Assembly: GCA_037833965.1 (NCBI GenBank)
Contig: AP031355.1
Span: forward strand, 5,047,501-5,111,500
DNA length: 64,000 nt
Reading direction: 5' to 3'
Source of the DNA: Marchantia polymorpha subsp. ruderalis
Taxonomy: Eukaryota > Streptophyta > Marchantiopsida > Marchantiales > Marchantiaceae
In this document: one piece after another, positions 26,841-50,684 of the stretch
Layout: each line of letters begins with the position of its first letter
Numbering within the stretch: position 1 is the stretch's first letter
The notes under the pieces: model-generated
What the model was told of the DNA's origin: nothing
The model's database searches: none
Seen by the model: only the letters and a program-made list of their open reading frames with translations
Position numbers and translations under genes: made by a program

Positions 26841-26861
26841 TGCTAGGTAGGACTTAGAAGG

Positions 26862-26890: not shown

Positions 26891-29705
26891 GGTTCTTTCC
26901 CATCAGAAGTGCAGACCAGGAACCCATTTCCTTTGCGTGTTTGTGTCCTTGAGTTCTGTCACCACGCACGAGGAGTTACAACTTAGCGTTCCGCATTTTG
27001 TAGCTGAAGGCCTTCGGCCGAATGTTCAGAGCTAGTCCATTGGTTAGAGACTTGAGTAGTTCGGATCTGCACCTGTGGGTGACTGCCGATGCTCAGAGCC
27101 AGTGACTAGTTAGATACTTGAACAGTTTCGCCCCTACATCCTCGAGTGTTTCTTTCTGATTGTACTCCTTGGGATTTTTCCCCTGAATGCCAAAGTGAAG
27201 TTTTGCTACTTCGTGTAAGCCTTGGTTGTAAATTCAGGTTACGCTGCAGCAGGTGCCTTGAGGGTAACCCCTGTAGTAGTTCTGGGAATGACAAGTGCCT
27301 GAGAATTCAAACTCTTCAATAGACTGTTGTTGTGTTACTGGAATGTTTCTCAGTGAGTCCTTCAGTGCGGACCTGTGTTCTCTGCGCGTTTTGTGAGTTG
27401 AGAGTGTTGTTCACCGCGTCTGAGTGACTTCGATCCGAAGTAGGCAGTCCAAACCGGGTTTCCTACACTAGCAGCAAGCTAGTGGAAGTGTTGTAAAAGC
27501 CGGAGTTGGAAGTCACTACCCGCAGCTTCGCAGAGTGTACTCTTGAGAGACTTTCCCCCTGAAATCTTGAAGTAGAGGTCCTAACGGATCTCTGGGTTGT
27601 GTTTCTGTAGTTTCAGGTGTGTGTGTGTGTGTTACGCTGCACTGTGCGACCTCCGAGTGCGCTCCGAGTGGACACTTGCAGTATTTCTGGGAGTGACAGT
27701 CGCCTGAGAATTCAAACTCCTCAATAGTCTGTTAAAACGTGACACTTTGTACCCTGTGTGTTCCTCTGTCCCTGTGGGTTCGACCTTTCTACCACTATAT
27801 TGCAGTTTTAGCCTTTAGTGGGTTATTACACTCCGCTCGAGCTCCTTTCTGCTTCGGCAAACTCTCATCTCCCTCAATTCCAAATCACGCACTCACTTCT
27901 CCCTCAATCACCAAGAAATCCTCTGCGCGGCGATGTCGAGAATGCTTAGCAGCTAGCAGATGGACGCGCGCAGCTCGCACTAGAGAATGGAATCGCGAAT
28001 TCAAGAATAGGACGCTCTCCGCCTCCCGTTCGAAGGTCATGGTCGGCTCTTGCTCGTGAAGGACGACTCAATTGATGGCCGCGCCGGCTCTACGCTAAAA
28101 CGGTCTCCGCTCTCACGCGCGGCTTCACGCTCCGCCGACGCCGATCTAACTCTCACGCTCGAATTGGCAAATTTGAACTCCGCGAGCGTACTACGCCGCA
28201 GACACGGGTGCGCAGCGCCGAAGGCGGATTTTCCGCCTTGCGCGGTACACTCGTTCGTACCGCTCCTCAGCCAATCCTCCTCTGCCTCGGCGCTTGTCCG
28301 CACGTCGGACAAAAGTTCAATTCTCGCCTGTGCGCAGGCGGACTCCTCGGCGGATTCTCCGCCGGCGCGGAACTTCACCCTCCTGTGCACAGGCGCTCGC
28401 CTGTGCGCAGGCGAAGTCCGTCCGCGTCGATGCGCTGGCGCGGAAGGCGTTGACCACGGTCAACCGACTCCGTCCAGACTGTCCGTTCCTTGTCTCTCCG
28501 TCGGCGCTCTCGCCGCCGCAACTCCGTCCGTCCAAGAGCGCCTCCATCCGTCCCGTCCGTACAGTCCGTACGGATTTTACTATTCTGGCGGCTCCTTGCT
28601 CGTCCGCGGCGTTGCGCTGGCGCAGAAGGCGCCGTACAATTTCTACCTCACAAGGCGCATTTCTAGGGCCCAAGGCGGATTTCCCGCCGACGCCGAAGCG
28701 CCTGTGCGTAGGCGAACTTCGCGCCTACATCAAAACCCTATTTCGCCCGTGCGCAGGCGAACTTCCTTCGTCCGCGCATAGGACAAAACTTCTCCGCCTG
28801 TGCACAGGCGAAGAGCTGAGTATCTTACAACCTTCATAACTCCCGGAGTCCTCATCCGTTGTTGGCGTTCTTGGGCTCGTTGGAATCAACGCGTCGAGCT
28901 CTTTCCAACGAGACCCTAACTAAGTCAAGACGTTTGGGGGTAGACCTAAATATGAAGGATTTCCCTACCGCCGCGGACGCAGCGCCGAAGGCGGATTTTG
29001 CGCCTTGCGCCGTAGGGATCCTAACTGCAGAGCTCGCAGGGAGGGTGGTGCCCTTCCTTACCGCTGCACCCAACTCCTAGATTCTACGAGGTCCCTCGAG
29101 AATCTCTGCGATCTTCCGAATTCACTCTGTTTTGATGCACCGAAGGCTATTTACATTGCTGCCGTGGTACAGTTTTCCAAAAATGTTTTAATTTCCTCAA
29201 AATTACCAAAAGTGGGGTACCACAAAATTCAACTGAGAAAAGATCCAGTGTCACACCATAACAGTCTATTGACGAGTTTGAATTCTCAAGCACTAGTCAT
29301 TCCCAGAAGTACTGTAGAGGCTAGACTTGAAGGCATCGTCTACAGCGTAACCTGAATTTACAACCAAGGCTTACTCGAAGTGACAAAACTTCACTTTGGC
29401 ATTCAGGGGAAAAATCCCGCAGGAGTACAAACAGGAACGGTCACCCGAAGGTGTAAGATCAAACTACTCAAGTGTCTAACCAGTCCGCTAGCTCTAAGCA
29501 TTCAGCGATCACCCGCAGGTGTAGGTTCGAACTGATCACGTATCTAACCAGCACACTAGCTCTGAGTATTCGGCCGAAGGGCTTCAGCTACAAAATGCGG
29601 TAACTTCGTCAAGCTGTAGCTCCTCTTGCGCGGTGACAGAACTAAGTACACAAACACGCAGAGAAAATGAGTTCCTAAACTGCACTTCCGAAACTGGAAA
29701 AATCC

Positions 29706-29734
29706 CAAGGCAAGACGCCTTGAACTACTTTATA
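29706..29734 (-). promoter_or_regulatory. LTR TATA box and palindrome, family C
   Basis: TATAAA on the - strand (29734-29729) is followed by CAAGGC-GTCTT-GCCTTG. The stem is the same as in family A; only the loop differs. Confidence 0.6.
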
Positions 29735-32417
29735 CAATCTAAGTCCTAACTACCTAACACTCTACACTACACTACACTCCATGTCATCTGTTATGTCTCC
29801 TGCGCGACGGACTACCGCGCACTAACTCCCTACCCGACTAGTCGTCAGCTCTGCTGCGCAACTCCAGCCGCCGAAGTATCTCGGTCACCTTTGCCTCGAG
29901 GTTCGCAATGGCGTCTCGCGACCTCGACAGAAAGGCATCTAACCTCTTCGCGACCCGCCGCCGGCTCAGACTGTCATCCAACATCAATTCCGCCGCACGA
30001 ATCTCTAACCCGCGCAGTGTGATTCTCTCCTGCGTAGCCACTTCCCCGTGAGTGTAACCTCTGAGGCAGCTGTTCACTCGCTCTGCCAACTCTTCTCGCG
30101 TGCGATCTGTCGCGCGCCGGTGATCGCCTTCAACCTCTACCAACTACAGCACTGCCTCCGCACGCTGCGCTCTCAATCCGCCGCACTGCGATTGCAGGCG
30201 ACGAATTAACTCATCATCGGCTTGACGTGCGCTCTGACACTGCTCTAGCAACCGTGTCTGTCGCACGAGCTCCTCTAACAATATGCGATTCTGAGCTTGC
30301 TCAGAATCGAGCTCCGCCTCGAGCTTCTCCCGCTGCTTTGCAAGTTCTTTCTCCGCTTCGTCCAACTTCTCATCACACACCTTGTTGACTGCCTTCTGCA
30401 ATTTCCGCGAAAGTGCGAGGTGTCCGCGCAGGGCCTCATTCTTCAACTTCAAATCCTTGATTGTCTCGTCTAGGGAAGCCAACAAAGGACTTGTCATGAC
30501 CTTGGTCCGCGTCCGATTGCGCACCAATTGGACGTAGGACCCCTGATGGCGGGGATCACCATATTTCGCCACCTTGCAATCAAGGTACCGCAGCAGGGGT
30601 ACCACCTGCTCGCACAAGACTCCTGTCGGCGTGCCTTGCACCGACTCCTCTTCCTGCTCCTCCGAACTCGACTCATCCTCATCATCGTCCGAATTGAGGA
30701 TCTCGGTCGCTACAAAATTCCCCGGTGATTCCCGGGAGTTGGGTTGCGTGGCTTCAGCTGCCGCGGCCGCCGCTCCACTCCCTGCCAAAATGTCTAATGC
30801 GGTGGGAGACCGGGCTCCCGGCAAGTCCGCTTCTCCTGCCTGATCTGCTACCGCCGAAGGCGCATCGCCGAAGGCGTCTACCGCCGAAGGCACTTGTGCC
30901 AAAGGCGACTATGCCGAATGCACACGTGTCTCCTCCTTCCGTCCTTCGTCCGTCGCCGATCTCTCACATTGGGCTTGCGCCTAAGGCGCTTCCGCCAAAG
31001 GCGTATTGCCGAAGGCGTCTATCGCCGAAGGTGCTTGACCCGAAGTTCGTTGAGCCAAAGGCTCCTCCTCACTCCTCTGCTGTGCCGAAGGCTCTTGACC
31101 CGAAGTCGAGTCATCAACTGGTACTTGCTCGGGAGCGAAGCACCTGTCCGTCGTCGGCACATTCGTCGGTGCCGCATGTTGTCTCCCTTGACCCGAAGGC
31201 CTTCTTGCTTCCGCCGAAGGCGTCCGTGCCTTTGGTGCAGGGAGGTCCGCTGACCTCTCCGAAGTTCGTGCACTCGCATCCTCCCCCGAGAATGGCAAGT
31301 TTCTCCTCTCTGCAGCTTTTCTAGTTTCTGCCTTGCTTGCCGGCAAGACGAGCCTGCGAGCCTTCTGCTTGGGACGACTACAGAGCTACTGCATCGTCCG
31401 CTTTCGACTAGGAGCAACAGCATCGCATTGCTGGCTCTGAACCGCCTCTCCTTCCCACTTCCGCTTCCGCGGCACTCGTGCTGCGAGCGGTTTTTCCTCC
31501 GCCCTCGGTTGAACTGGTGTCGTTGTAATAACCCACCAAAGGCTAAAACTGCAGTATGGTGGTAAAAAGATCGAACCCACAGGGACAGAGGCAACACACA
31601 GAGTAAAAGTGTCACATTTAACAGACTTTTGGTAGAGTTTGAATTCTAGGCGACTGTCACTCCCAGAAATACTGCAGTGCTCGACTCGGAGGCTCGACTC
31701 GGAGGAGGATCTCAACTCGGAGGATGCTCGGAGGATGCACGGTACAGCTTGGTCACTCAACACACACACACACACCTGAAACTGGCAAAAAGCACAACTC
31801 GGAGGTCGGTCAGGACCTCCGCTTCGGATTTCAGGAGGAAAGTGTCTCGCAAGTTCACTCAGAGGTTCTGCAGGAAGTGCCTCCCACTCCGGCTTTTACT
31901 GCCCTTCCGCCAGGAACTAGCGGGGGTACCCGGACTGGACTTCTCACTTCGGAACGAAGCCTCTACGTACGCCGTGGACGTCACCCTCGACTATCACACA
32001 AAACGCAGGGAGTGCAGACCCGACTGAGAACTTACTGAAAACACGATCCAGTAACACACACACAACCTGAATTACAAACCAAGGTTTACACGAAGTAATG
32101 AAACTTCACATTGGCATTCAGGGGAAACTTCCCGTAGGAGTACAATCAGGATATGTCACTCGAAGGAGTAAGGGGGAACTGTTCAAGTATCTAACTCGCA
32201 GCCGGCTCTGAGTATCAGAAATCACCCGCAGGTGCAGATCCGCACTACTCAAGTCTCTAACCGGGTACTAGCTCTGAACATTCAGCCGAAGGCCTTCAAC
32301 TACAACATACGGTAACTTCGCTATGCTGCAGCTTCTCTACGTGGTGCCAGGACCAAAATGCACAAACACGCCAAGAAAGTGAGTTCCTGATCTGCACTTC
32401 CGAAACTGGAAGAGTCC

Positions 32418-32446
32418 CAAGGCAAAACGCCTTGATCTACTTTATA
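32418..32446 (-). promoter_or_regulatory. LTR TATA box and palindrome, 3' LTR
   Basis: TATAAA on the - strand (32446-32441), then CAAGGC-GTTTT-GCCTTG, 34 bp beyond the ORF stop and 922 bp from the LTR end. Confidence 0.7.
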
Positions 32447-32479
32447 CTCTCAAAAGATCCTAACTAGCACTACGCTATC

Positions 32480-35035
32480 CTATCTACCACTCGCAGCATC
32501 TGCGCGAAACCAAACTACTCTACTGCACTCAGCAGATCCGGTGCTGCGCCTCCTGCGCGCCGGACTGCTCCGCGTACTATCTCTACCTTGCCAGTCTTCC
32601 GACCGGCTGCGTAACCCCAGGCGTCGGAGTGCTGCAGTGACTTCCGACTGCAAGTGCGCCATAGTGTCGCGCGCACCCGACAAGAAAGTTTCTAATTTTC
32701 TTGCCACTCGCCGCCGACTCCGACTGTCACCTTCCGTCAATGCCGCCGCCCGAAGCTCGAACTCCCGGAGTGTAACCCTCTCTTGAGCTGCCACCTCCCA
32801 ATGGGTGTATCCGTTTAGACAACGAGTCACCCGTGCCGCCAACTCTCCTCGTGCCCTGCAGCTGCTCTCCACCTCTGCCAGTTGCATTTCTAAATCCGCA
32901 CGTTGTGTCCTCAAATCCGAGCACTCGGTTTGCAAGTTGCACAACAACTCCTCATCCTCCTTCCGGGCTCTTTGACTTTCCTCTAAGGCGCGCGTCTGGC
33001 GCGTAAGCTCGGCTGCTAGGACTTCGTTCTGTCTCCGCTCCTCCTGCAGTTCCGACTCGATCTTTGCCCGTATTAGTTCGGCCTCCGCCTGACTCTTCGT
33101 CGCCGCATCCTCCTTCTGCTGCTGCAAGGCTTGGTACAGCTTCTGGGTGACCGCCAGGTGTTGTCGGAGGGCGGTGTTCCTATCCACATATACTCCGCAT
33201 CTAGAGGCCCACCTTGCCACCTTGCTCCTCGTCCTTCGCCTGATTGTCTCCACATAAGACTGCGGTTTTAAGGCACTTGCGTATTTGGATGTCTTGCGAT
33301 CCAGATATCGCAGGAGTGGAACTATCTGTTCGCACAGCACCCCTGTTGGCGTTTTCTGCACCGAATCCTCTTCTTGCTCTTCCGAGCTCGTCTCATCCTC
33401 AGTCTCGAGGATCTCAGTCGCCACTGAATCCCTTGGCGACTCCCTGGAACTGTGGCGCGCAGCAGCTTCTGCTGCGACTGCTGCTCCACTGCCTGCTAAA
33501 ATATCCAGGGCAGTGGGAGATCCCACTGCTTGAGCCCCTGTTCCGGCTCGATCTTCGGTTTGTGAAGGGGTCGACGCCGCAGTGACTTTTGTCACTCTTG
33601 CACCGCCCGCTTCTGCTGCCTGTCCTTCCGGCGCAATCTGCGCGGAAGGTGTCCTTGCTGAAGGTGCGTCCGCCGAAGGCGTCCGCACACTGGTCGTTGG
33701 CCCCATCCGTCTCGCAGTCGGCGAATCCGGCTGACTCTCTGTTGTCCGACTCGCAGTCGGCCGACCAGCAGTTGTCCGACTGGGAGTCGGATACACCCTG
33801 CGCGTCTTGACTCCACTTGGCCTGCTTGTTGGGGGCGTTCTTCCAGAAGTGCCTTCCGCCGAAGACGACCCTCTGAGGATTGTTGGCTCGTCAGCCAAAC
33901 TCTCTTCCGTTTCCGGCCTGCTGTCCGGTTCAACGCGCCGTTCAGTTGGCCTTCCTTCCGTCTGTCGACCTTCAGTCATCCGACTCGCAGTCGGCCGGCT
34001 GTCAGTCCGTCCATCTCCTCCCGAAGGCCGTGGTGCCTTCTGTGCAGAGGTTTCTGCCGTCTTCCCTAGAACCTGAGCGATTATCTCTTCCTGTGTGAGA
34101 TTCCGCCGGGTCGGAGTTCGCCTGGTCTCCTCAGTAACAGTTGGCATCCTGCGTGCCCTCTGTTTTGGTCGACTATGAGGCTCGGGGGTGGGCCGACCAC
34201 GAGTCGGCGCAGCTGGTACTTCCGGCTGCCTGTCCTCAGGTCTCTCATCCCACTTCCGCTTGCGCGGAATGCGCTCACTTCGACGTTCTTCTGCTGCTCT
34301 GGCTGGAGCCGGAGCCGGAGGCGTACTGGCAGGTTCCTCGTCCGGATCCGTGTCTACTTCGGCCTCCCTCGAATATCTACCTGGATAAGACCGGCTCAGC
34401 TGCGGAAACCGAGTTTTCTCAGCATTCGTCAAACATCCCATCGCCCGGTAAAACACGATTAAGTAAGGCGATAGATGATTGAGCGTTCCTCCCCTCTCTT
34501 CTTGCGCATGTTGGCGCGTCACCTTCCACAGGAGCCGTGCCCAATGCACCGGAGCTCCTGACAACACTAGCTCCACGAACTCTACCTGCCAACCATGCAT
34601 GTAAGCGGTCTTGGTCGGCTGCAATATCTGCAGCAATGCTGTCGCGACATTTCTCCGCAATCGATCCTTGTAATCCCGAGTCCGGAAACCGTTCTTGGGA
34701 TGTCTGGCCACTTTGAAGAGCTCATTGTAAGAGACTTCTTCCTCCTGGGACACCTTCACGCTATCGGCCTCGAAGAGGAGATCCCCTTCCTCGCCGGCAC
34801 ACCTGCCCAACACCTGCGCCCAATTGCAAATTTCCCATCTCTCTGGGTGTGGGCGAAATCCGCGAGAAGGCTTGTGTCTCTCTTGCAGATACTCGCGCAC
34901 CATCTCCGGACACGTCCAATTCCACCCCCAGAGGAGAAAATCGAGCTTCAGCCTCGTCAGCACATCTTGAAATGCGCGTAGACCGATCTGCGGCACCCTG
35001 AGTGGAGACACTCGCAGTTGGGGAACCTTCGACAT
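32480..35035 (-). CDS. LTR-encoded (U3) protein in the 3' LTR, intact 851 aa
   Basis: The start ATG is at 35033-35035 (MSKVPQLRVSPLRVPQ). The protein has the same length and layout as the one in solo LTR A1: conserved N-terminal region, P/T/S/R-rich repeats, coiled coil, basic tail. Of the two copies in this element, this one would lie within the genomic RNA, 3' of pol and upstream of the 3' TATA/R. The sequence TTTGTGTGTGCAG ends 8 nt before the ATG and resembles a splice acceptor, so a spliced subgenomic mRNA is possible. No catalytic motif is visible. Its place resembles that of an accessory or env-like gene, but it has no signal peptide or membrane segment. Confidence 0.85.
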   Translation of the reverse strand: MSKVPQLRVSPLRVPQIGLRAFQDVLTRLKLDFLLWGWNWTCPEMVREYLQERHKPSRGFRPHPERWEICNWAQVLGRCAGEEGDLLFEADSVKVSQEEEVSYNELFKVARHPKNGFRTRDYKDRLRRNVATALLQILQPTKTAYMHGWQVEFVELVLSGAPVHWARLLWKVTRQHAQEERGGTLNHLSPYLIVFYRAMGCLTNAEKTRFPQLSRSYPGRYSREAEVDTDPDEEPASTPPAPAPARAAEERRSERIPRKRKWDERPEDRQPEVPAAPTRGRPTPEPHSRPKQRARRMPTVTEETRRTPTRRNLTQEEIIAQVLGKTAETSAQKAPRPSGGDGRTDSRPTASRMTEGRQTEGRPTERRVEPDSRPETEESLADEPTILRGSSSAEGTSGRTPPTSRPSGVKTRRVYPTPSRTTAGRPTASRTTESQPDSPTARRMGPTTSVRTPSADAPSARTPSAQIAPEGQAAEAGGARVTKVTAASTPSQTEDRAGTGAQAVGSPTALDILAGSGAAVAAEAAARHSSRESPRDSVATEILETEDETSSEEQEEDSVQKTPTGVLCEQIVPLLRYLDRKTSKYASALKPQSYVETIRRRTRSKVARWASRCGVYVDRNTALRQHLAVTQKLYQALQQQKEDAATKSQAEAELIRAKIESELQEERRQNEVLAAELTRQTRALEESQRARKEDEELLCNLQTECSDLRTQRADLEMQLAEVESSCRARGELAARVTRCLNGYTHWEVAAQERVTLREFELRAAALTEGDSRSRRRVARKLETFLSGARDTMAHLQSEVTAALRRLGLRSRSEDWQGRDSTRSSPARRRRSTGSAECSRVVWFRADAASGR

Positions 35036-36387
35036 TGCGTTGCCTGCACACACAAACGTTCTTTCGCTCACTCTCTCACAATCGCCACTGCGCGTCGGCC
35101 ACTCAAGCACTGACTGCTCACTCTCTCTGCGCTCGTTCAAGATCGCTACTCCCAATTCTTTCGAGGTCCGCCAAGATCCTTGTGCAACTCGTCTCCGCAC
35201 TCTCTACTCTCACTGCAGGTCGCTCCGCCCTTGCGCGTAATCTTGGAACTGGAAATTGCAAAGTCAAGAATGAGAGAATGAGACTGGAGCGCAGTCTTTT
35301 CTTCTCCGATTTCAAGAACGTCCAACGTTCTTACTGGTTGCAACGTACGCAGCCGGCTATACGGCTTAACGGTTCGCCCTTTGCATGCGCGAATTCACGT
35401 CTCCGCCTTGCGCGCATTCGCATGCTTAAACGTTGAATTCTCCCGCCGCCGCCACCTTCCGGACTCGAGTCCGCTGCAGGGTATACGTCGGCCCTGTTGT
35501 CTTTTCCTAACCCGCCCTTCTCCGGAGGCGTGTCGCCGCTGGTGCGTTCATTATCCGTCGGCGCCTTGCTGGAGGCGCACATCCAGCCGGAGCGAATTAC
35601 GCCGGCGCGCAGTCGTACCGCCTATTTTGTCCTTTATGCCTCGTCCGTTGCTGCCAGCGCATATCCGTCAGCGCAACTCGTGCCAGCGCATCCGGCCGTC
35701 AGCGCCACGTCGGAGGCGTACATCCGACCGGCGCTTTCCTTCCATGAACAGCCGCCAAGGGCGCTTCCGACTCTGAGTTGGTTTCCTCCTGTGAGCGCGT
35801 GATTCCGCCGAAGGCGCATCGCCGAGGGCGTACGGGGAATCCTTTCCGGCTGTGAACCCTAGCGCGAACGGCGCATGTCCGGCTACGAGTTCTCCGACGC
35901 TCATAACTTCTCCATTCCTGATCCATCTCCGGCGCTCTTGGACTCGTTAGAACGAGCGTCCCGAGCTCTTTCTAATGCAACTTCAACCAACTGGATCTAC
36001 CGTGTATCCCGATTGTTATGAAGGTTTTCCCTTTCCGCGCTAGCGGCGCTTCGCCGAAGGCGCACTCATGGTCGGATGCCTTTAGAGGTCCGGGCCCTTC
36101 TCCTGACGTCTTTAGCAAAACCTCCTCCTGAGGTGTCTGCGCCGGAAGCGTAGCTTCCTTGTACGCTAGAGGCGCGTGAGTAGAGACACCTCAAAAAGAA
36201 GTCTTTGCCGAAGGCGCCGAAGACGTTGGCGTTGGTACATCCGACTACGTGATTCTTTGTGCCCTCGTGACGATCTCATCAATCCACTCTATTTAGCGTA
36301 CCCTTCTCTAGCTACAAACACTGCTTTGGTACTAGTTTTCTAAAATTGTTTAAATTCTGCAAAAAAAACAAAAAGTGTGTTACCACA

Positions 36388-36400
36388 TGCCCCCCTCCTC
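36388..36400 (-). other. Polypurine tract
   Basis: On the - strand GAGGAGGGGGGCA lies directly against the TGTGGTAACAC start of the 3' LTR. It is the expected primer for plus-strand DNA synthesis. It begins only about 24 nt beyond the pol stop. Confidence 0.85.
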
Positions 36401-36424
36401 AATTGTGAGCGCCCACGCGAACAT

Positions 36425-39265: not shown

Positions 39266-39268
39266 CTA
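39260..39268 (-). promoter_or_regulatory. Predicted stop-codon readthrough site between gag-pro and pol
   Basis: On the - strand the gag stop is TAG followed by CAACTA, then an open frame straight into pol. This matches the CARYYA context known to promote UAG readthrough in tobamoviruses. It would set the Gag to Gag-Pol ratio. Efficiency cannot be judged from sequence. Confidence 0.75.
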
Positions 39269-42103
39269 TTCCTCATCCGGATACACCTCGTCTCTTTCCT
39301 CCTCAATGGAGCAGCAAGTGACGTAGCCCACAAAGTCTTCCGACGTTTCGGTCTCTGAAGTGCATGTTGAGCTGGTCTCCCCTCCGGTTGTGTAACCGGA
39401 GGTGGTGGAAGGTGTTTCGCCCTCATGGGGTACCTTGGTCCACGGTACGGTAATGACAGTCGGAGGGTCCGCAGGGCTACGGAACTGTAATCTCTTCCTA
39501 CTCCAGTCACACCTTGCTTTGGCTTCGTATAGCCACGGTCTGCCAAGCAGCACATCATAACCTTTCTTCATCAGAGGTTGCAGTATTATGTAGGACAGTT
39601 GAAAGTCCACTCCTCCAATGTTGGTTCTCACATTGCTCAACATTCCTAGTGGCATTCTGCGTGTTTGATCGGCCAGTCGCAATACTCGGGATGTAGGCTC
39701 GAAGGTCTGGAACCCCAAGGAGTTCGCTGTCTCCTCGGTCATGATATTCACGCCCGAGCCGGAGTCCACTGGTACCTTCTGAATGACGCAGCCTCCGATC
39801 TCTACTTCGATCTCTGGAGGTCCCAGGTCTCCTCCTTCCACTCTGTACACAGCCGGAAGTTTCTCTTTTCGGGGTTTGCGTGGTCGGCGCAACGAAAGCA
39901 TCAGCATCCTCCTGTACGTCTTATTGTCTTCCAACAACTGGTGGAAGGAAATATTTGCCCTCTGGCTCCCCATGTCTTTCACTATGTCGTAGGGAGTGCT
40001 GGAAGTCACGGCCGGAAGTTTCCCTGTACTCGCGGTCGGAAGGGGTGTAGGGGGCCTAACTGCCTTCCGGTCGTCGGATGTCATTCCGGCGCCCAATGCT
40101 TCCTTGATGAGGTGACTCACCTCATCTTTGATGTCCGGAAGGTAATCTCGAGTCCGGAACTCTTCTGAATACCTGTCCGCCTTTTCTGAGTTCTGCTCCG
40201 GCTGGGTGTTTCTCATAGCCGGAGGTGTACTTGGCGTTCTCCTTTGGCCTTCTCTAACTTCTTTAGACTTCCTCCTCTCTTCCCTACGCTCGAGGCGGCG
40301 AGTGTCCTCATGGCCTTCTCCTCTCCTCTTCGAACTTCGGGTTTCTACCCGGCCGCACATTACTTCTTCCTCTGGCCATACTTCGTCTCCTTCAGCTGGG
40401 TCCAGACTCAGTTCTACCTGGTTGACCTGCACCTCTTCCTTGCCAGGTGTTGATACGAAACGCACGGCTGGCCTAGGGATTTGGGGCTGGTCACATTCAG
40501 CTGCTGTATGTCCGGACTTCTTGCAATTGCTGCACAATGGTGCATACCCCATTGGCTTCCTCGGGTGGGGACAACTTGGCGCGTAATGCCCCATGTCTCC
40601 GCAGTTGTAGCAACCATCGAATTGTGGTCGAGGTCGGTGATTTCCTGTGTGATTTCCTGGAGGTGCCATGCGTCTTGGTGGGAGTGTACCCGCCATTTCC
40701 CTCGGAACAAAGCGCGGTATATGCACCGGTGGGTTCGGAGTTGTAGCTGGAGCTGTCTGTACCGAGTAGGCGGTGTCCTCCACCTGCTCAGCATAATACA
40801 TAGGCGGCTCAGCATAATACATGGGGTTCTCCCACTGTGGTGCCCATTCGACCGCATTCACTGGGTAAGATGGCCTCGCGGACATGCACTCCGTGTTGGC
40901 ATGTCCCACCTGTCCGCACGTAGTACACCAGAGATTCGCTCGTTGTCTTGCAGGTGATTTACGTCGGTCTTGGCCTCCCACTACATGAACTTTCAGGTCC
41001 GCAAAATTCTTCACCAGGTTGTCTACCTTGGCTGCGATGTCCCCTTGAGTCTTCACTGGGATTCCCTTACCTCGATCCTTCTTCTTGATCGCACTGCGTT
41101 TCTTCTTCCGTCTTTCTTCTTCTGAAGATGACGAGTCCTCTTCCTCTTCCGAGGAAGAACTTGATTCGGAGGAGCTTGATTCTTCTGTCGAGGAAGGCGA
41201 GTTCCTTCTCTTCCGACGTCCGCCTTGCGACTTCTTCTTCGTCGACCGTCGGTCGCGTCTTCGAGTGTCAAGGGTTGACGTCTCAAAGGTCTCCGCGGAA
41301 GCTATCACATCTTGGATTGTGTCAGTCTTGCCTCTCCTACAGAAGGTCTCCATTTCTCTTGGGAGCCCTGTCACATACCAATCCACTGCCTGTTGTACCG
41401 AATACGGTTCTCCCGGGCCTGTCTTCGGAATTCGATCTAGGAGGTCTTGGAATCTCTCAGTGTAGTCTCGAAGATTCTCCTTCCGCTCGCGTCGAAGATT
41501 TCGAAGCCGGGTCAGAACTCGACTGTCATATCCGAGTTCGCGGAACCGCTTCAGAAACTTTTCCTTGAGCTGAGCCCAGGTCCGGATGCCAGTGGGGTCG
41601 GTGCTCTCATGGTTGTACCAGCTACGCGCTCGTTTGCGTAGCAGGCTAGGAAAGATTCGTAATCTGTCTTCATCACTGGTCTCACGATTGGCGATGGAGA
41701 CAGACTCGAAGAGCTTTATGTATGAATCTGCATCATCGTCGTCGCCCGTTCCCGTGTATCTTGGATACGAATGTTTGGTGGTAGGTTGGGAAAACACCTG
41801 GCGGAGATTGGCTTGATGTTCTGCCATCGGTGATCCTGTCGACGGACTGATCCTAGGTTGGCCAAACTCAGGAAGAGTTCCTGTCGGAGGGATGTCCAAT
41901 AGAATCGTTAGCTCAATGCTCTCGGTAGGTGAACTGGAACACCTTTGTCTTCCAGTAGTCGGTGATGGCGATCTTTCTGCAGAGTCCTCACCGGGAGTCT
42001 TCTTTTTAGTTCGCCGTTTTGTTTCCACGGCTTTTTCTGAATCTCGACGGAGTTTCCGTGTGGCTCTCGCACTCAGGTTTCCCACACTATCGCTCGTCGA
42101 CAT
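39266..42103 (-). CDS. gag-pro: Gag-protease polyprotein, 945 aa
   Basis: The ATG at 42101-42103 (MSTSDSVGNLSARATRKLRR) lies about 83 nt inside the 5' LTR edge. A retrotransposon Gag capsid region follows (ARSWYNHESTDPTGIRTW, LKEKFLKRFRELGYDSRV, LPREMETFCRRGKTD). Next come a serine/acid-rich and a basic stretch, then three CX2CX4HX4C zinc knuckles: CTTCGQVGHANTEC near residue 391, CYNCGDMGHYAPSC near 496 and CSNCKKSGHTAAEC near 525. A retroviral-type aspartic protease with VPVDSGSGVNIM lies near residue 775. Gag packages the RNA into particles and the protease would process the polyproteins. Three knuckles is more than the one or two usual in plant gypsy Gags. The frame ends in the UAG of the readthrough site. 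Confidence 0.93.
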   Translation of the reverse strand: MSTSDSVGNLSARATRKLRRDSEKAVETKRRTKKKTPGEDSAERSPSPTTGRQRCSSSPTESIELTILLDIPPTGTLPEFGQPRISPSTGSPMAEHQANLRQVFSQPTTKHSYPRYTGTGDDDDADSYIKLFESVSIANRETSDEDRLRIFPSLLRKRARSWYNHESTDPTGIRTWAQLKEKFLKRFRELGYDSRVLTRLRNLRRERKENLRDYTERFQDLLDRIPKTGPGEPYSVQQAVDWYVTGLPREMETFCRRGKTDTIQDVIASAETFETSTLDTRRRDRRSTKKKSQGGRRKRRNSPSSTEESSSSESSSSSEEEEDSSSSEEERRKKKRSAIKKKDRGKGIPVKTQGDIAAKVDNLVKNFADLKVHVVGGQDRRKSPARQRANLWCTTCGQVGHANTECMSARPSYPVNAVEWAPQWENPMYYAEPPMYYAEQVEDTAYSVQTAPATTPNPPVHIPRFVPREMAGTLPPRRMAPPGNHTGNHRPRPQFDGCYNCGDMGHYAPSCPHPRKPMGYAPLCSNCKKSGHTAAECDQPQIPRPAVRFVSTPGKEEVQVNQVELSLDPAEGDEVWPEEEVMCGRVETRSSKRRGEGHEDTRRLERREERRKSKEVREGQRRTPSTPPAMRNTQPEQNSEKADRYSEEFRTRDYLPDIKDEVSHLIKEALGAGMTSDDRKAVRPPTPLPTASTGKLPAVTSSTPYDIVKDMGSQRANISFHQLLEDNKTYRRMLMLSLRRPRKPRKEKLPAVYRVEGGDLGPPEIEVEIGGCVIQKVPVDSGSGVNIMTEETANSLGFQTFEPTSRVLRLADQTRRMPLGMLSNVRTNIGGVDFQLSYIILQPLMKKGYDVLLGRPWLYEAKARCDWSRKRLQFRSPADPPTVITVPWTKVPHEGETPSTTSGYTTGGETSSTCTSETETSEDFVGYVTCCSIEEERDEVYPDEE

Positions 42104-42147
42104 TCACCGAGCATTGCTGCTCAAGGTTTCTGGTGTTGACGCACTGT

Positions 42148-42164
42148 CCCCGGCAGCGGCGCCA
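42148..42164 (-). other. Primer-binding site, tRNA-Asp-like
   Basis: On the - strand TGGCGCCGCTGCCGGGG starts 22 nt inside the 5' LTR edge. It is complementary to the 3' end of plant tRNA-Asp (CCCCGGCAACGGCGCCA) apart from one base. This is established as a common primer for Athila/Tat-like gypsy elements; the assignment here rests on that match, and the 22-nt offset is longer than usual. Confidence 0.8.
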
Positions 42165-43080
42165 AAAAGAAGTTGTCGGCTCCTTATGTAATAACCCACC
42201 AAAGGCTAAAACTGCAGTATGGTGGTAAAAAGATCGAACCCACAGGGACAGAGGCAACACACAGAGTAAAAGTGTCACATTTAACAGACTTTTGGTAGAG
42301 TTTGAATTCTAGGCGACTGTCACTCCCAGAAATACTGCAGTGCTCGACTCGGAGGCTCGACTCGGAGGAGGATCTCAACTCGGAGGATGCTCGGAGGATG
42401 CACGGTACAGCTTGGTCACTCAACACACACACACACACCTGAAACTGGCAAAAAGCACAACTCGGAGGTCGGTCAGGACCTCCGCTTCGGATTTCAGGAG
42501 GAAAGTGTCTCGCAAGTTCACTCAGAGGTTCTGCAGGAAGTGCCTCCCACTCCGGCTTTTACTGCCCTTCCGCCAGGAACTAGCGGGGGTACCCGGACTG
42601 GACTTCTCACTTCGGAACGAAGCCTCTACGTACGCCGTGGACGTCACCCTTGACTATCACACAAAACGCAGGGAGTGCAGACCCGACTGAGAACTTACTG
42701 AAAACACGATCCAGTAACACACACACAACCTGAATTACAAACCAAGGTTTACACGAAGTAATGAAACTTCACATTGGCATTCAGGGGAAACTTCCCGTAG
42801 GAGTACAATCAGGATATGTCACTCGAAGGAGTAAGGGGGAACTGTTCAAGTATCTAACTCGCAGCCGGCTCTGAGTATCAGAAATCACCCGCAGGTGCAG
42901 ATCCGCACTACTCAAGTCTCTAACCGGGTACTAGCTCTGAACATTCAGCCGAAGGCCTTCAACTACAACATACGGTAACTTCGCTATGCTGCAGCTTCTC
43001 TACGTGGTGCCAGGACCAAAATGCACAAACACGCCAAGAAAGTGAGTTCCTGATCTGCACTTCCGAAACTGGAAGAGTCC

Positions 43081-43109
43081 CAAGGCAAAACGCCTTGATC
43101 TACTTTATA
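43081..43109 (-). promoter_or_regulatory. LTR TATA box and palindrome, 5' LTR: promoter of the genomic RNA
   Basis: TATAAA on the - strand (43109-43104), then CAAGGC-GTTTT-GCCTTG. Transcription is expected to begin about 30 bp downstream, giving roughly 0.9 kb of R/U5 leader before the primer site and gag. Confidence 0.7.
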
Positions 43110-43142
43110 CTCTCAAAAGATCCTAACTAGCACTACGCTATC

Positions 43143-45698
43143 CTATCTACCACTCGCAGCATCTGCGCGAAACCAAACTACTCTACTGCACTCAGCAGAT
43201 CCGGTGCTGCGCCTCCTGCGCGCCGGACTGCTCCGCGTACTATCTCTACCTTGCCAGTCTTCCGACCGGCTGCGTAACCCCAGGCGTCGGAGTGCTGCAG
43301 TGACTTCCGACTGCAAGTGCGCCATAGTGTCGCGCGCACCCGACAAGAAAGTTTCTAATTTTCTTGCCACTCGCCGCCGACTCCGACTGTCACCTTCCGT
43401 CAATGCCGCCGCCCGAAGCTCGAACTCCCGGAGTGTAACCCTCTCTTGAGCTGCCACCTCCCAATGGGTGTATCCGTTTAGACAACGAGTCACCCGTGCC
43501 GCCAACTCTCCTCGTGCCCTGCAGCTGCTCTCCACCTCTGCCAGTTGCATTTCTAAATCCGCACGTTGTGTCCTCAAATCCGAGCACTCGGTTTGCAAGT
43601 TGCACAACAACTCCTCATCCTCCTTCCGGGCTCTTTGACTTTCCTCTAAGGCGCGCGTCTGGCGCGTAAGCTCGGCTGCTAGGACTTCGTTCTGTCTCCG
43701 CTCCTCCTGCAGTTCCGACTCGATCTTTGCCCGTATTAGTTCGGCCTCCGCCTGACTCTTCGTCGCCGCATCCTCCTTCTGCTGCTGCAAGGCTTGGTAC
43801 AGCTTCTGGGTGACCGCCAGGTGTTGTCGGAGGGCGGTGTTCCTATCCACATATACTCCGCATCTAGAGGCCCACCTTGCCACCTTGCTCCTCGTCCTTC
43901 GCCTGATTGTCTCCACATAAGACTGCGGTTTTAAGGCACTTGCGTATTTGGATGTCTTGCGATCCAGATATCGCAGGAGTGGAACTATCTGTTCGCACAG
44001 CACCCCTGTTGGCGTTTTCTGCACCGAATCCTCTTCTTGCTCTTCCGAGCTCGTCTCATCCTCAGTCTCGAGGATCTCAGTCGCCACTGAATCCCTTGGC
44101 GACTCCCTGGAACTGTGGCGCGCAGCAGCTTCTGCTGCGACTGCTGCTCCACTGCCTGCTAAAATATCCAGGGCAGTGGGAGATCCCACTGCTTGAGCCC
44201 CTGTTCCGGCTCGATCTTCGGTTTGTGAAGGGGTCGACGCCGCAGTGACTTTTGTCACTCTTGCACCGCCCGCTTCTGCTGCCTGTCCTTCCGGCGCAAT
44301 CTGCGCGGAAGGTGTCCTTGCTGAAGGTGCGTCCGCCGAAGGCGTCCGCACACTGGTCGTTGGCCCCATCCGTCTCGCAGTCGGCGAATCCGGCTGACTC
44401 TCTGTTGTCCGACTCGCAGTCGGCCGACCAGCAGTTGTCCGACTGGGAGTCGGATACACCCTGCGCGTCTTGACTCCACTTGGCCTGCTTGTTGGGGGCG
44501 TTCTTCCAGAAGTGCCTTCCGCCGAAGACGACCCTCTGAGGATTGTTGGCTCGTCAGCCAAACTCTCTTCCGTTTCCGGCCTGCTGTCCGGTTCAACGCG
44601 CCGTTCAGTTGGCCTTCCTTCCGTCTGTCGACCTTCAGTCATCCGACTCGCAGTCGGCCGGCTGTCAGTCCGTCCATCTCCTCCCGAAGGCCGTGGTGCC
44701 TTCTGTGCAGAGGTTTCTGCCGTCTTCCCTAGAACCTGAGCGATTATCTCTTCCTGTGTGAGATTCCGCCGGGTCGGAGTTCGCCTGGTCTCCTCAGTAA
44801 CAGTTGGCATCCTGCGTGCCCTCTGTTTTGGTCGACTATGAGGCTCGGGGGTGGGCCGACCACGAGTCGGCGCAGCTGGTACTTCCGGCTGCCTGTCCTC
44901 AGGTCTCTCATCCCACTTCCGCTTGCGCGGAATGCGCTCACTTCGACGTTCTTCTGCTGCTCTGGCTGGAGCCGGAGCCGGAGGCGTACTGGCAGGTTCC
45001 TCGTCCGGATCCGTGTCTACTTCGGCCTCCCTCGAATATCTACCTGGATAAGACCGGCTCAGCTGCGGAAACCGAGTTTTCTCAGCATTCGTCAAACATC
45101 CCATCGCCCGGTAAAACACGATTAAGTAAGGCGATAGATGATTGAGCGTTCCTCCCCTCTCTTCTTGCGCATGTTGGCGCGTCACCTTCCACAGGAGCCG
45201 TGCCCAATGCACCGGAGCTCCTGACAACACTAGCTCCACGAACTCTACCTGCCAACCATGCATGTAAGCGGTCTTGGTCGGCTGCAATATCTGCAGCAAT
45301 GCTGTCGCGACATTTCTCCGCAATCGATCCTTGTAATCCCGAGTCCGGAAACCGTTCTTGGGATGTCTGGCCACTTTGAAGAGCTCATTGTAAGAGACTT
45401 CTTCCTCCTGGGACACCTTCACGCTATCGGCCTCGAAGAGGAGATCCCCTTCCTCGCCGGCACACCTGCCCAACACCTGCGCCCAATTGCAAATTTCCCA
45501 TCTCTCTGGGTGTGGGCGAAATCCGCGAGAAGGCTTGTGTCTCTCTTGCAGATACTCGCGCACCATCTCCGGACACGTCCAATTCCACCCCCAGAGGAGA
45601 AAATCGAGCTTCAGCCTCGTCAGCACATCTTGAAATGCGCGTAGACCGATCTGCGGCACCCTGAGTGGAGACACTCGCAGTTGGGGAACCTTCGACAT
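43143..45698 (-). CDS. LTR-encoded (U3) protein in the 5' LTR, intact 851 aa
   Basis: The start ATG is at 45696-45698. The frame is the counterpart of 32480-35035 at a constant offset of 10,663 bp, with the same translation as far as I compared. It lies upstream of the LTR TATA box, so it could be expressed only from a promoter in the first 1.3 kb of the LTR or from flanking DNA. Layout: N-terminal region to about residue 226, repeat-rich middle, coiled coil at about 650-735, basic tail. Confidence 0.83.
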   Translation of the reverse strand: MSKVPQLRVSPLRVPQIGLRAFQDVLTRLKLDFLLWGWNWTCPEMVREYLQERHKPSRGFRPHPERWEICNWAQVLGRCAGEEGDLLFEADSVKVSQEEEVSYNELFKVARHPKNGFRTRDYKDRLRRNVATALLQILQPTKTAYMHGWQVEFVELVLSGAPVHWARLLWKVTRQHAQEERGGTLNHLSPYLIVFYRAMGCLTNAEKTRFPQLSRSYPGRYSREAEVDTDPDEEPASTPPAPAPARAAEERRSERIPRKRKWDERPEDRQPEVPAAPTRGRPTPEPHSRPKQRARRMPTVTEETRRTPTRRNLTQEEIIAQVLGKTAETSAQKAPRPSGGDGRTDSRPTASRMTEGRQTEGRPTERRVEPDSRPETEESLADEPTILRGSSSAEGTSGRTPPTSRPSGVKTRRVYPTPSRTTAGRPTASRTTESQPDSPTARRMGPTTSVRTPSADAPSARTPSAQIAPEGQAAEAGGARVTKVTAASTPSQTEDRAGTGAQAVGSPTALDILAGSGAAVAAEAAARHSSRESPRDSVATEILETEDETSSEEQEEDSVQKTPTGVLCEQIVPLLRYLDRKTSKYASALKPQSYVETIRRRTRSKVARWASRCGVYVDRNTALRQHLAVTQKLYQALQQQKEDAATKSQAEAELIRAKIESELQEERRQNEVLAAELTRQTRALEESQRARKEDEELLCNLQTECSDLRTQRADLEMQLAEVESSCRARGELAARVTRCLNGYTHWEVAAQERVTLREFELRAAALTEGDSRSRRRVARKLETFLSGARDTMAHLQSEVTAALRRLGLRSRSEDWQGRDSTRSSPARRRRSTGSAECSRVVWFRADAASGR

Positions 45699-48426
45699 TG
45701 CGTTGCCTGCACACACAAACGTTCTTTCGCTCACTCTCTCACAATCGCCACTGCGCGTCGGCCACTCAAGCACTGACTGCTCACTCTCTCTGCGCTCGTT
45801 CAAGATCGCTACTCCCAATTCTTTCGAGGTCCGCCAAGATCCTTGTGCAACTCGTCTCCGCACTCTCTACTCTCACTGCAGGTCGCTCCGCCCTTGCGCG
45901 TAATCTTGGAACTGGAAATTGCAAAGTCAAGAATGAGAGAATGAGACTGGAGCGCAGTCTTTTCTTCTCCGATTTCAAGAACGTCCAACGTTCTTACTGG
46001 TTGCAACGTACGCAGCCGGCTATACGGCTTAACGGTTCGCCCTTTGCATGCGCGAATTCACGTCTCCGCCTTGCGCGCATTCGCATGCTTAAACGTTGAA
46101 TTCTCCCGCCGCCGCCACCTTCCGGACTCGAGTCCGCTGCAGGGTATACGTCGGCCCTGTTGTCTTTTCCTAACCCGCCCTTCTCCGGAGGCGTGTCGCC
46201 GCTGGTGCGTTCATTATCCGTCGGCGCCTTGCTGGAGGCGCACATCCAGCCGGAGCGAATTACGCCGGCGCGCAGTCGTACCGCCTATTTTGTCCTTTAT
46301 GCCTCGTCCGTTGCTGCCAGCGCATATCCGTCAGCGCAACTCGTGCCAGCGCATCCGGCCGTCAGCGCCACGTCGGAGGCGTACATCCGACCGGCGCTTT
46401 CCTTCCATGAACAGCCGCCAAGGGCGCTTCCGACTCTGAGTTGGTTTCCTCCTGTGAGCGCGTGATTCCGCCGAAGGCGCATCGCCGAGGGCGTACGGGG
46501 AATCCTTTCCGGCTGTGAACCCTAGCGCGAACGGCGCATGTCCGGCTACGAGTTCTCCGACGCTCATAACTTCTCCATTCCTGATCCATCTCCGGCGCTC
46601 TTGGACTCGTTAGAACGAGCGTCCCGAGCTCTTTCTAATGCAACTTCAACCAACTGGATCTACCGTGTATCCCGATTGTTATGAAGGTTTTCCCTTTCCG
46701 CGCTAGCGGCGCTTCGCCGAAGGCGCACTCATGGTCGGATGCCTTTAGAGGTCCGGGCCCTTCTCCTGACGTCTTTAGCAAAACCTCCTCCTGAGGTGTC
46801 TGCGCCGGAAGCGTAGCTTCCTTGTACGCTAGAGGCGCGTGAGTAGAGACACCTCAAAAAGAAGTCTTTGCCGAAGGCGCCGAAGACGTTGGCGTTGGTA
46901 CATCCGACTACGTGATTCTTTGTGCCCTCGTGACGATCTCATCAATCCACTCTATTTAGCGTACCCTTCTCTAGCTACAAACACTGCTTTGGTACTAGTT
47001 TTCTAAAATTGTTTAAATTCTGCAAAAAAAACAAAAAGTGTGTTACCACAGTCGTGCAGGCGGGCGTCTCGTCTTTGTCAATATCGACTTCGACGTCCTT
47101 CACATATCGGCCCGGATTCCTGCGTGACAACAATGGAAATTGTACCCGCTCCGACGTAGTCAAACATCCCATCGATCGATAGAAATTGATCAAGAAGGGG
47201 AAGAGATGATTGATCGATCCTCCCTTCTCCTTGAATGTGTGTTGTCTCGTCGTCTTCCACAGAATGCGAGCCCAATGAATCGGAGCTCCGGACAACCCCA
47301 GCTCCACGAACTCCACCTGCCAAGAAGTTATGTAGGTGGTCCGGTGCGGCTGCAAGAGTTGAATGAGTGCTACCGCGATATTCCTCCGCAAGCGATCCTT
47401 GTGGTCACGAGTCTTGTACCCGTTCTTGCTCGACTTGTTGTGCTTGAATAGAGCCCCGAAGGAACCTTCTTCCTCCTTCGAGACATTGACACTCTTGCAC
47501 TCGAAAAGAAGATAACCTTCTTCTCCCGCGCATCTTTCCAACTGTAATAACCCACCAAAGGCTAAAACTGCAGTATGGTGGTAAAAAGATCGAACCCACA
47601 GGGACAGAGGCAACACACAGAGTAAAAGTGTCACGTTTAACAGACTTTTGTAGAGTTTGAATTCTAGGCGACTGTCACTCCCAGAAATACTGCAGTGCTC
47701 GACTCGGAGGAGGATCTCAACTCGGAGGATGCTCGGAGGATGCACGGTACAGCGTGGTCACTCAACACACACACACACACACACCTGAAACTGGCAAAAA
47801 GCACAACTCGGAGGTCAGTCAGGACCTCCGCTTCGGATTTCAGGAGGAAAGTGTCTCACAAGTTCACTCAGAGGTTCTGCAGGTAGTGCCTCCCACTCCG
47901 GCTTTTACTGCCCTTCCGCCAGGAACTAGCGGGGGTACTCGGACTGGACTTCCCACTTCGGAACGAAGCCTCTACATACGCTGTGGACGTCACCCTCGAC
48001 TATCACACCAAACGCAGGGAGTGCAGACCCGACTGAGAACTTACTGAAAACACGATCCAGTAACATACACACAACCTGAATTACAAACCAAGGTTTACAC
48101 TAAGTAATGAAACTTCACATTGGCATTCAGGGGAAACTTCCCATAGGAGTACAATCAGGATATGTCACTCGAAGGAGTAAGGGGGAACTGTTCAAGTATC
48201 TAACTCGCAGCCGGCTCTGAGCATCAGAAATCACCCGCAGGTGCAGATCCGCACTACTCAAGTCTCTAACCGGGTGCTAGCTCTGAACATTCAGCCGAAG
48301 GCCTTCAACTACAACATACGGTAACTTCGCTATGCTGCAGCTTCTCTACGTGGTGCCAGGACCAAAATGCACAAACACGCCAAGAAAGTGAGTTCCTGAT
48401 CTGCACTTCCGAAACTGGAAGAGTCC

Positions 48427-48455
48427 CAGGGCAAAACGCCTTGAACTACTTTATA
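48427..48455 (-). promoter_or_regulatory. LTR TATA box and palindrome, family D
   Basis: TATAAA on the - strand (48455-48450), then CAAGGC-GTTTT-GCCCTG. One pair of the palindrome is lost in this copy. Confidence 0.6.
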
Positions 48456-48555
48456 CCTTCTAAGGTCCTAACTAACACTACACTACCCGCTAGGGTGCGA
48501 GCCGCAACAGATCCTACACCTGAGGAGTCGGCGGCTACCTTCCCCTCTAACTTAC

Positions 48556-48590
48556 AACCTAAATCTAACCCTAACCCTAAATCTGAATCC
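48556..48590. repeat. Telomere-like CCCTAA/CCTAAAT run
   Basis: A short degenerate array (CCTAAATCTAACCCTAACCC and on) resembles the plant telomere heptamer CCCTAAA. It lies in the U3 of the family-D LTR, just upstream of its TATA box. Confidence 0.55.
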
Positions 48591-50603: not shown

Positions 50604-50684
50604 CGTAAATATTTATGCTATGGTTTGAATGGTAAACAAAAACAATTAATAAAAAATACGAATTATTAGATATGGCTAAAACGC
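50604..50684. other. 81-bp AT-rich insertion in solo LTR A2
   Basis: All other family-A copies read CTTCCGGC then GCAGACACC at this point; here 81 bp of very AT-rich sequence intervenes. There are no terminal repeats. It looks like filler DNA captured at a repaired break; an organellar origin is possible but unproven. Confidence 0.7.

What the first reader, a model, noticed from the sequence alone, without database searches (positions are those of the whole stretch)
31524..47050. Giant retrotransposon LTRs that encode an 851-aa protein in U3
Seen: each 4864-bp LTR carries a full sense ORF (32480-35035, 43143-45698) lying upstream of the LTR TATA box. The same ORF, of the same 2556-bp length, is intact in solo LTRs at 18432 and 57404. 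Families B and C carry diverged versions with the same N-terminal motifs, ALDILA and EQVVPLL motifs, coiled coil and RRRRSTGSAECS tail, while the middle repeats differ. Known: LTRs are normally noncoding; mouse mammary tumour virus sag is a rare case of an ORF in U3. Inference: this is a third gene of the element, kept by selection, possibly an RNA- or DNA-binding oligomer that acts on LTR DNA or particles.
Basis: partly seen in the sequence, partly recalled or inferred. Interest (0 to 1): 0.92.

Follow-up and report, generated by a model that had tools for sequence, protein, structure and literature searches.

The report
Protein gene inside retrotransposon LTRs
In the liverwort Marchantia, a lineage of jumping genes carries an intact, selected protein gene inside its end repeats, so a complete copy can hold two of them and even leftover single ends can keep a whole one.

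Summary
The window is Marchantia polymorpha DNA. Element A (31524-47050, minus strand) is a complete Ty3/gypsy element: 4,864-bp LTRs differing at one base, 5-bp target duplication, gag, protease, RT-RNaseH-integrase. Each LTR encodes the same 851-aa protein in sense, at LTR positions 1353-3908, ending 33 bp before the LTR's only TATAAA; by that it lies in U3. It is a real gene: third codon positions differ about 2-4 times more than first or second, dN/dS is 0.24-0.35 in frame against 0.9-2.2 in wrong frames, and four LTR copies show no indel in it. Three capped genome searches listed 159 distinct A copies; 149 have no stop, 85 sit in same-strand pairs (37 of 46 distances 10,656-10,666 bp; no opposite-strand pair). 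Families B and C, and probably P0021, also carry it inside LTRs. No relative outside Marchantia was found, except unnamed records. The protein is basic, has no membrane segment and a coiled-coil-like part. Expression and function are not shown. Most likely it is a trans-acting accessory protein, encoded downstream of the polypurine tract and hence copied into both LTRs. ORF-less sibling LTRs exist, so it seems dispensable in cis.

The parts
31524..47050 (-). Complete Ty3/gypsy element A, inserted in a family-C LTR; target duplication GTCGT
   Evidence: self-BLAST, TSD/PBS/PPT, domains
42187..47050 (-). 5' LTR, 4,864 bp, TG...CA
31524..36387 (-). 3' LTR, 1 difference to the 5' LTR
43143..45698 (-). 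LTR ORF (851 aa, P0001) in the 5' LTR, LTR positions 1353-3908, upstream of the TATA box (U3)
32480..35035 (-). Identical LTR ORF in the 3' LTR
43104..43109 (-). TATAAA core promoter motif of the 5' LTR, 33 bp after the ORF stop; 36, 21 and 49 bp after the stop in B1, B2 and C
39266..42103 (-). gag with zinc knuckles and aspartic protease (945 aa, P0005)
36425..39166 (-). pol: RT, RNase H, integrase (913 aa, P0004)
42146..42165 (-). Primer-binding-site-like sequence, 21 nt from the 5' LTR
   Evidence: a tRNA-Asp match is recalled, not tested
36388..36400 (-). Polypurine tract abutting the 3' LTR; only 37 bp lie between pol stop and LTR
17075..21943 (+). A1 solo LTR with intact ORF 18432-20987, TSD CACTC, inside B1
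56048..60918 (+). A4 solo LTR with intact ORF 57404-59959, TSD GGCCT
50683..55314 (+). A3 LTR, 5' truncated, ORF 51797-54352 with 2 stops
13675..29224 (-). B1 solo LTR (TSD AAATT), interrupted by A1 and B2; LTR ORF relative starts at 22410
22456..27830 (+). B2 solo LTR, 5,375 bp, TSD CTCCG; LTR ORF relative from 23938, matched to 26816, frameshifted
13257..50109 (-). Family-C LTR remnant with LTR ORF relative (50109-49882, 47541-47053, 31523-29790), interrupted by D, element A and B1; its R-U5 end continues left of B1 (13257-13508)
47543..49880 (-). D solo LTR (TSD CCAAC): shares the A promoter-R-U5 end (95.5%) but shows no LTR ORF match

Best explanation
Shown: a Ty3/gypsy retrotransposon lineage of Marchantia carries a third protein-coding gene, in sense, wholly inside the LTR, upstream of the LTR's only TATA box, kept by purifying selection. 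Inferred: because the gene lies between the polypurine tract and R, it belongs to U3, so reverse transcription copies it into both LTRs; the full-length RNA carries it once, as the 3' cistron behind gag-pol. It is probably translated from a spliced or internally initiated RNA that ends in R, comparable to MMTV sag. The product is a soluble basic protein (about 200-aa conserved N-terminal part, basic low-complexity linker, coiled-coil-like part, basic tail) that acts in trans as an accessory factor at a nuclear or nucleic-acid step of the element's cycle. The gene may have entered U3 when the polypurine tract came to lie upstream of a formerly internal 3' ORF. Solo LTRs left by recombination can therefore keep a full coding unit.
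For: Anatomy. Selection: dN/dS of the element's ORF against A1, A4, A3 is 0.29, 0.24, 0.24, and over all six A pairs 0.24-0.35; two wrong frames in three pairs give 0.89-2.22; N-terminal part 0.11-0.18. No gap column in the ORF in 6 of 6 LTR pairs. Against B2 and C, N- and C-terminal parts give 0.17-0.21 where not saturated. The U3 leader aligns between A and B2 only over two stretches of about 60 bp, while ORF protein and promoter-R-U5 are kept. TATAAA 21-49 bp after the stop in A, B1, B2, C. Genome: 159 distinct loci in three capped searches, 149 without stop, 85 in same-strand pairs; 37 of 46 pair distances are 10,656-10,666 bp; 0 opposite-strand pairs. LTR-like start 357-395 bp before the match in 23 of 30 P0021-family loci. 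A gag-pol-less LTR-637 bp-LTR copy with both LTRs 99.7-99.8% like the reference and target duplication ATTCT, so presumably moved in trans. Protein: pI 9.6, maximum 19-aa hydropathy 1.22, no proline 601-800, basic clusters at 258, 599, 774, 827.
Against: No transcript, start-site or peptide evidence was available. ORF-less relatives exist: the D LTR with the same promoter end, and a pol-intact copy at C3:2023276 whose 3' LTR lost positions 725-2757, so the gene seems not needed in cis. In the capped lists for the more decayed families, read by eye, I found no verified LTR pair; the one candidate examined was 75% alike over 649 bp only, and three other same-strand neighbours (C1:857067/865091, C4:451155/455725, C6:30490678/30510652) were not examined. 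No donor family with the ORF outside the LTR was found or specifically sought, so the origin step is unsupported. The splice-acceptor-like sequence before the ATG in A is not kept in B or C. The coiled coil rests on a crude heptad count. dN/dS between copies mixes selected and post-insertion change, and the LTR parts have unequal divergence, a sign of recombination.
Confidence: 0.6

Rival explanations
1. The LTR ORF product is an anti-silencing factor: it binds LTR DNA of its own family and counteracts DNA methylation in trans, as VANC proteins of Arabidopsis VANDAL elements do; residence in the LTR keeps gene and target together, and solo LTRs become both source and target.
For: Basic, soluble, with basic clusters; middle less constrained than the ends in A against A3, B2 and C; a gag-pol-less copy keeps the gene. 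VANC as precedent: starts of the abstracts of PMC5735166 and PMC10398659 in the listing.
Against: No recurring Pfam match in the family; no binding or methylation data.
Confidence: 0.25
2. Transcription starts upstream of the ORF, in the first 1.35 kb of the LTR; the ORF is then in R/U5 and is the first cistron of the genomic RNA, like an upstream extra ORF but inside the LTR.
For: The 5' 1.35 kb is available as promoter; many plant promoters lack a TATA box (recalled).
Against: The only TATAAA in the LTR sense strand is after the ORF, and this position is kept in A, B1, B2 and C; D, which lacks the ORF, keeps that promoter end.
Confidence: 0.15
3. Self-standing gene cassette: each LTR, also a solo LTR, expresses the protein from its own U3-internal promoter, so that the many solo LTRs act as a dispersed gene family.
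For: Intact ORFs in solo LTRs; MMTV sag is made from a U3-internal promoter P2 (passages of PMC9412291).
Against: The A and B2 leaders share only two stretches of about 60 bp, one of them the LTR end; copies of more decayed families mostly have stops, so solo copies as such seem not to be kept by selection.
Confidence: 0.2
4. Not a gene: an open frame by composition or a gene-prediction artefact.
For: Middle part is low-complexity; annotated only as hypothetical proteins.
Against: Simulated maximum 331 codons against 907; frame-specific dN/dS; 42-64% protein identity to B and C with synonymous differences near or at saturation.
Confidence: 0.02

Closest known systems
MMTV sag (and naf) in the U3 of the mouse mammary tumour virus LTR
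   Same: A sense ORF in U3, hence in both LTRs (passages of PMC9412291)
   Different: Here a plant Ty3/gypsy element without env; 851 aa with no transmembrane segment instead of a membrane superantigen (membrane nature of Sag recalled); promoter not mapped
Plant LTR retrotransposons with additional ORFs (Athila env-like, Ogre, Retand, Grande gene23, SIRE)
   Same: An extra gene in many copies, function unknown (PMC7264820 parts 1-2 of 3 read; PMC6317226 passages)
   Different: There the ORF is described in the internal region, most often between pol and the 3' LTR; here only 37 bp lie between pol and the LTR and the ORF is inside the LTR
Retrosat2/RIRE3/RIRE8 of rice (LTRs of about 3 kb or more plus ORF0)
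   Same: Very long LTRs and one extra ORF
   Different: ORF0 is upstream of the gag-pol ORF; in the passages seen the LTR is described as regulatory (PMC3485330)
LARD/TRIM-type non-autonomous LTR elements (recalled)
   Same: LTRs with a short interior lacking gag-pol (L029/L030; perhaps D)
   Different: L029/L030 keep an intact protein gene in their LTRs

Membership tests
Ty3/gypsy LTR retrotransposon | LTR pair with TG..CA ends and target-site duplication, PBS and PPT | tested here: met
   the tRNA of the PBS was not tested
Ty3/gypsy LTR retrotransposon | gag, protease, RT, RNase H, integrase in that order | tested here: met
   Pfam domains in order, (protease model just below its cut-off)
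Tat/Ogre clade (OTA) | second, archaeal-type RNase H domain | tested here: inconclusive
   Pfam shows only the RT-linked RNase H models; no dedicated search
Plant elements with an extra ORF in the internal region | extra ORF between LTRs, outside gag-pol | tested here: not met
   only 37 bp between pol stop and 3' LTR, 83 bp between 5' LTR and gag, 99 bp between gag and pol frames
Athila/SIRE env-like proteins | transmembrane segment | tested here: not met
   maximum 19-aa hydropathy 1.22, a simple measure
MMTV sag-type U3 gene | sense ORF within U3 of both LTRs | tested here: met
   U3 boundary inferred from the TATA box, start site not mapped
MMTV sag-type U3 gene | membrane-bound superantigen | tested here: not met
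   no membrane segment; no named relative outside Marchantia
MMTV sag-type U3 gene | expression from a U3-internal promoter or spliced RNA | not testable with these tools
   no RNA data
VANC-type anti-silencing protein | sequence-specific binding to own-family DNA and demethylation | not testable with these tools
   -
VANC-type anti-silencing protein | sequence relation to VANC proteins | not tested
   no direct comparison made; Pfam gave no family matched by more than 3 of 45 members at E up to 1

The most novel reading that the evidence does not exclude
A clade of plant retrotransposons has made its LTRs into protein genes: an old, selected gene sits in U3 of several families, a normal insertion plants two copies, recombination leaves one, and the product works in trans on LTR-bearing DNA (escape from silencing, or steering new copies into kin LTRs, where many recent insertions in fact lie). 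LTR size and the persistence of long solo LTRs would then be shaped by selection on a gene, not only by regulation.
Probability: 0.3. Interest if true: 0.88.

Novelty: new variant of a known kind. Interest (0 to 1): 0.76.

Why it matters
LTRs are treated as non-coding control regions. Here a 2.6-kb gene makes up just over half of a 4.9-kb LTR, is under selection across families, and stays intact in young solo LTRs. This gives one testable reason for giant LTRs, shows that genes can come to lie in U3 outside vertebrate retroviruses, and warns that LTR masking can hide real element genes (relatives are annotated as hypothetical Marchantia proteins). Marchantia is a tractable laboratory plant, so expression and function can be tested.

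Tried and rejected
Host-gene domestication of the one intact P0021-type copy (C6:13711626): not favoured, it begins with the same LTR-like TGTGGTAG start as its decayed kin; its 3' end could not be fetched. C9:2702317/2718449 as an LTR pair of that family: rejected, 75% over 649 bp only. A conserved splice acceptor before the ATG: seen in A, not in B or C. A plant transposon-protein domain in the N-terminus (a resemblance I recalled): no Pfam family matched more than 3 of 45 members at E up to 1; best single match E 0.00019, Extensin_1, one member. No named hit outside Marchantia among 120 at E up to 10; unnamed 'lgn' records have no stated species (searches scored only the 8,000 candidates sharing most words). 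Structure prediction: switched off. The plasmid search (no match) says little about plants. Kin-targeted insertion: suggestive only, no genome-share control.

Not in print, as far as searched: (open-licence PMC text) listed no paper that I recognised from title and start of abstract as reporting a protein gene inside plant LTRs; some searches listed 20 of 175, 20 of 61 and 8 of 61 papers. Subscription journals are mostly not held.
Full report
What is there. The window is from Marchantia polymorpha: the named relatives of the LTR protein are annotated from that species, and the window lies at C6:5047501-5111500 of a 241-Mb, nine-contig assembly. On the minus strand, 31524-47050 is a complete Ty3/gypsy element. 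Its LTRs (47050-42187 and 36387-31524) differ at one of 4,864 bases, begin TG, end CA, and are flanked by GTCGT on both sides. A primer-binding-site-like sequence follows the 5' LTR by 21 nt and a polypurine tract abuts the 3' LTR. Between them are gag with protease (42103-39266) and RT-RNaseH-integrase (39166-36425). Only 37 bp separate the pol stop from the 3' LTR, so there is no room for an internal third gene there.

The LTR gene. Each LTR carries the same sense ORF of 851 codons, at LTR positions 1353-3908. The only TATAAA of the LTR sense strand is at 3942, 33 bp after the stop. In B1, B2 and C a TATAAA in similar context follows the in-frame stop by 36, 21 and 49 bp. If transcription starts about 30 bp after it, as usual for plant TATA promoters (recalled), the gene is in U3. 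The start site itself is not measured.

Selection. Between the element's ORF and the copies A1, A4 and A3, dN/dS is 0.29, 0.24 and 0.24; over all six pairs of the four A copies it is 0.24-0.35. The three element pairs read in the two wrong frames give 0.89-2.22. Differences at codon positions 1, 2, 3 are 16/13/45, 21/10/43 and 43/32/99; the other three pairs give 15/19/34, 39/39/85 and 39/32/81. There is no gap column in the ORF in any of 6 pairwise comparisons, while the 5' part of the LTR has gaps in all 6 (in three of them mainly because A3 is truncated). By region, A against A3: N-terminal 0.11, middle 0.53, C-terminal 0.21. Against B2 and C the values are 0.17-0.24 where synonymous sites are not saturated; for B2 C-terminal and the P0021-type copy they are saturated, and only pN/pS can be quoted (0.33-0.61 over all these comparisons). 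The non-coding U3 leader of A and B2 aligns over only two stretches of about 60 bp. So across families the protein and the promoter-R-U5 end are conserved and the leader is not. A caveat: the LTR parts have different histories. A and A1 differ by 1.0% in the leader, 2.9% over the ORF (74 of 2,556 bases) and 0.2% in the 3' end, which points to recombination or conversion among copies.

Genome-wide. Three searches with three A variants listed 53 places each, 159 distinct; 0, 10 and 0 of them have internal stops. 85 of 159 lie in same-strand pairs within 14 kb; the 46 distances range from 5,500 to 13,117, and 37 are 10,656-10,666, the LTR-to-LTR period. There is no opposite-strand pair. By search, 42, 12 and 31 of 53 are paired. 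The lists are capped at the best-scoring copies. Of 50 listed pol copies (also capped), 10 have a listed ORF at the LTR distance. For the other 40 the lists do not answer; of 3 that I fetched, two have an open ORF (98.3% and 98.9% identical) and one, at C3:2023276, has a deletion of LTR positions 725-2757 that removes the first half of the ORF in its 3' LTR. One pair 5.5 kb apart is a non-autonomous element: two LTRs with intact ORF, 637 bp between them whose ends match the PBS and PPT sides, and the target duplication ATTCT.

Other families. Proteins related over all or part of their length number 16, 43 and 120 (N-terminal profile, E up to 10). All named ones are Marchantia; the rest are unnamed 'lgn' records. 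Searches with P0021, P0009 and P0007 scored 81, 63 and 74 candidates, mostly with stops. Reading these lists by eye I verified no LTR pair, examined one candidate and rejected it, and left three same-strand neighbours unexamined (C1:857067/865091, C4:451155/455725, C6:30490678/30510652). In 23 of 30 fetched P0021-type loci an LTR-like TGTG(A/G)TA start lies 357-395 bp before the match; in BLAST with two of them (L031, L033), similarity to most of the others begins at about that place. In the window B1, B2 and D are solo LTRs with perfect 5-bp duplications. So wherever ends could be read, the gene is inside an LTR-like unit; for B, C and P0021 this rests on ends and shared promoter, not on LTR pairs.

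ORF-less siblings. D (47543-49880) has the same terminal 943 bp as A (95.5%; the similarity starts 2 nt after the A stop codon) but a different U3 without a match to the gene. Its U3 gave 40 scored candidates, some about 3 kb apart on one strand, as a short non-autonomous element would (not examined further). D and C3:2023276 suggest that the gene is not needed in cis, which fits a trans-acting product and does not prove one.

The protein. For P0001 no Pfam family reaches its cut-off. Among 45 aligned relatives no family is matched by more than 3 at E up to 1 (best E 0.00019, Extensin_1, one member; cut-offs not shown for them). No solved structure matches. pI is 9.6 (middle part 11.2), maximum 19-residue hydropathy 1.22, no proline between 601 and 800, heptad-like spacing of hydrophobic residues around 695-725 and 779-808, basic clusters at 258, 599, 774 and 827. 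That makes an Env-like membrane protein unlikely and an oligomeric, probably nuclear or nucleic-acid-binding protein plausible. No structure could be predicted. The tail RRRRSTGSAECS is shared by A, B1 and B2; C ends RRRHNR.

How it most likely works. Shown: location in the LTR, selection, many intact copies, and a gag-pol-less copy with the gene. Inferred: the gene is read from a spliced or U3-initiated RNA ending in R, its product assists the element in trans, and it is in U3 because the polypurine tract lies upstream of it. The closest precedent for the location is MMTV sag (passages of PMC9412291). The plant papers that I read in part describe additional ORFs in the internal region (PMC7264820 parts 1-2 of 3; PMC6317226 passages; PMC3485330 passages). 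A liverwort genome paper counts 222 full-length LTR elements in M. polymorpha, and the passages seen mention no LTR gene (PMC9985172).

Verdict. A real, selected protein gene in the LTRs of a plant retrotransposon lineage. The kind (LTR retrotransposon with an accessory gene) is known; the place of the gene in a plant element appears not to be described, within the searches named. Function is open.

Noticed in passing
13257-50109: Deep nesting of sibling LTRs: A1 and B2 in B1; B1, D and element A in C (the C end continues left of B1); 5-bp duplications perfect for A1, B2, B1, D and A.
   Followed up: yes
L001-L030 flanks; L031-L060 flanks: Young A copies often sit in kin: of 58 flanks (2 of 60 unusable), 33 matched the internal region (mostly the element's own; L004, L005, L009, L027 only 74-87% alike, so probably kin), 18 matched A/B/C/D LTRs, 7 neither. 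For P0021-type LTRs 7 of 23 upstream flanks touch kin. No genome-share control.
   Followed up: partly
47543-49880: D LTR without the ORF but with the A promoter-R-U5 end; copies about 3 kb apart elsewhere suggest a short non-autonomous element.
   Followed up: partly
43081-43097 (and the other LTRs): Perfect 6-bp-stem hairpin 6 bp after the TATAAA in A, B1 and C; in B2 one pair is changed on both sides. It lies at or near the start of R.
   Followed up: no
C6:10770097-10812745; C8:4151290-4172616; C7:486795-508109; C6:21294472-21315792: Arrays of 3 to 5 LTR ORFs at one element period, as from unequal recombination.
   Followed up: no
L029/L030 (C6:9383240-9391292): Gag-pol-less element with intact LTR ORFs, 637-bp interior and target duplication ATTCT.
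   Followed up: partly
2554-4029: 491-aa plus-strand ORF with an F-box, overlapping an antisense 494-aa ORF without Pfam match: probably a host gene outside the nest.
   Followed up: no
P0020 (MARPO_0006s0274, partial): A public gene model joins part of an LTR ORF relative with Gag: element genes are being annotated as host genes.
   Followed up: no
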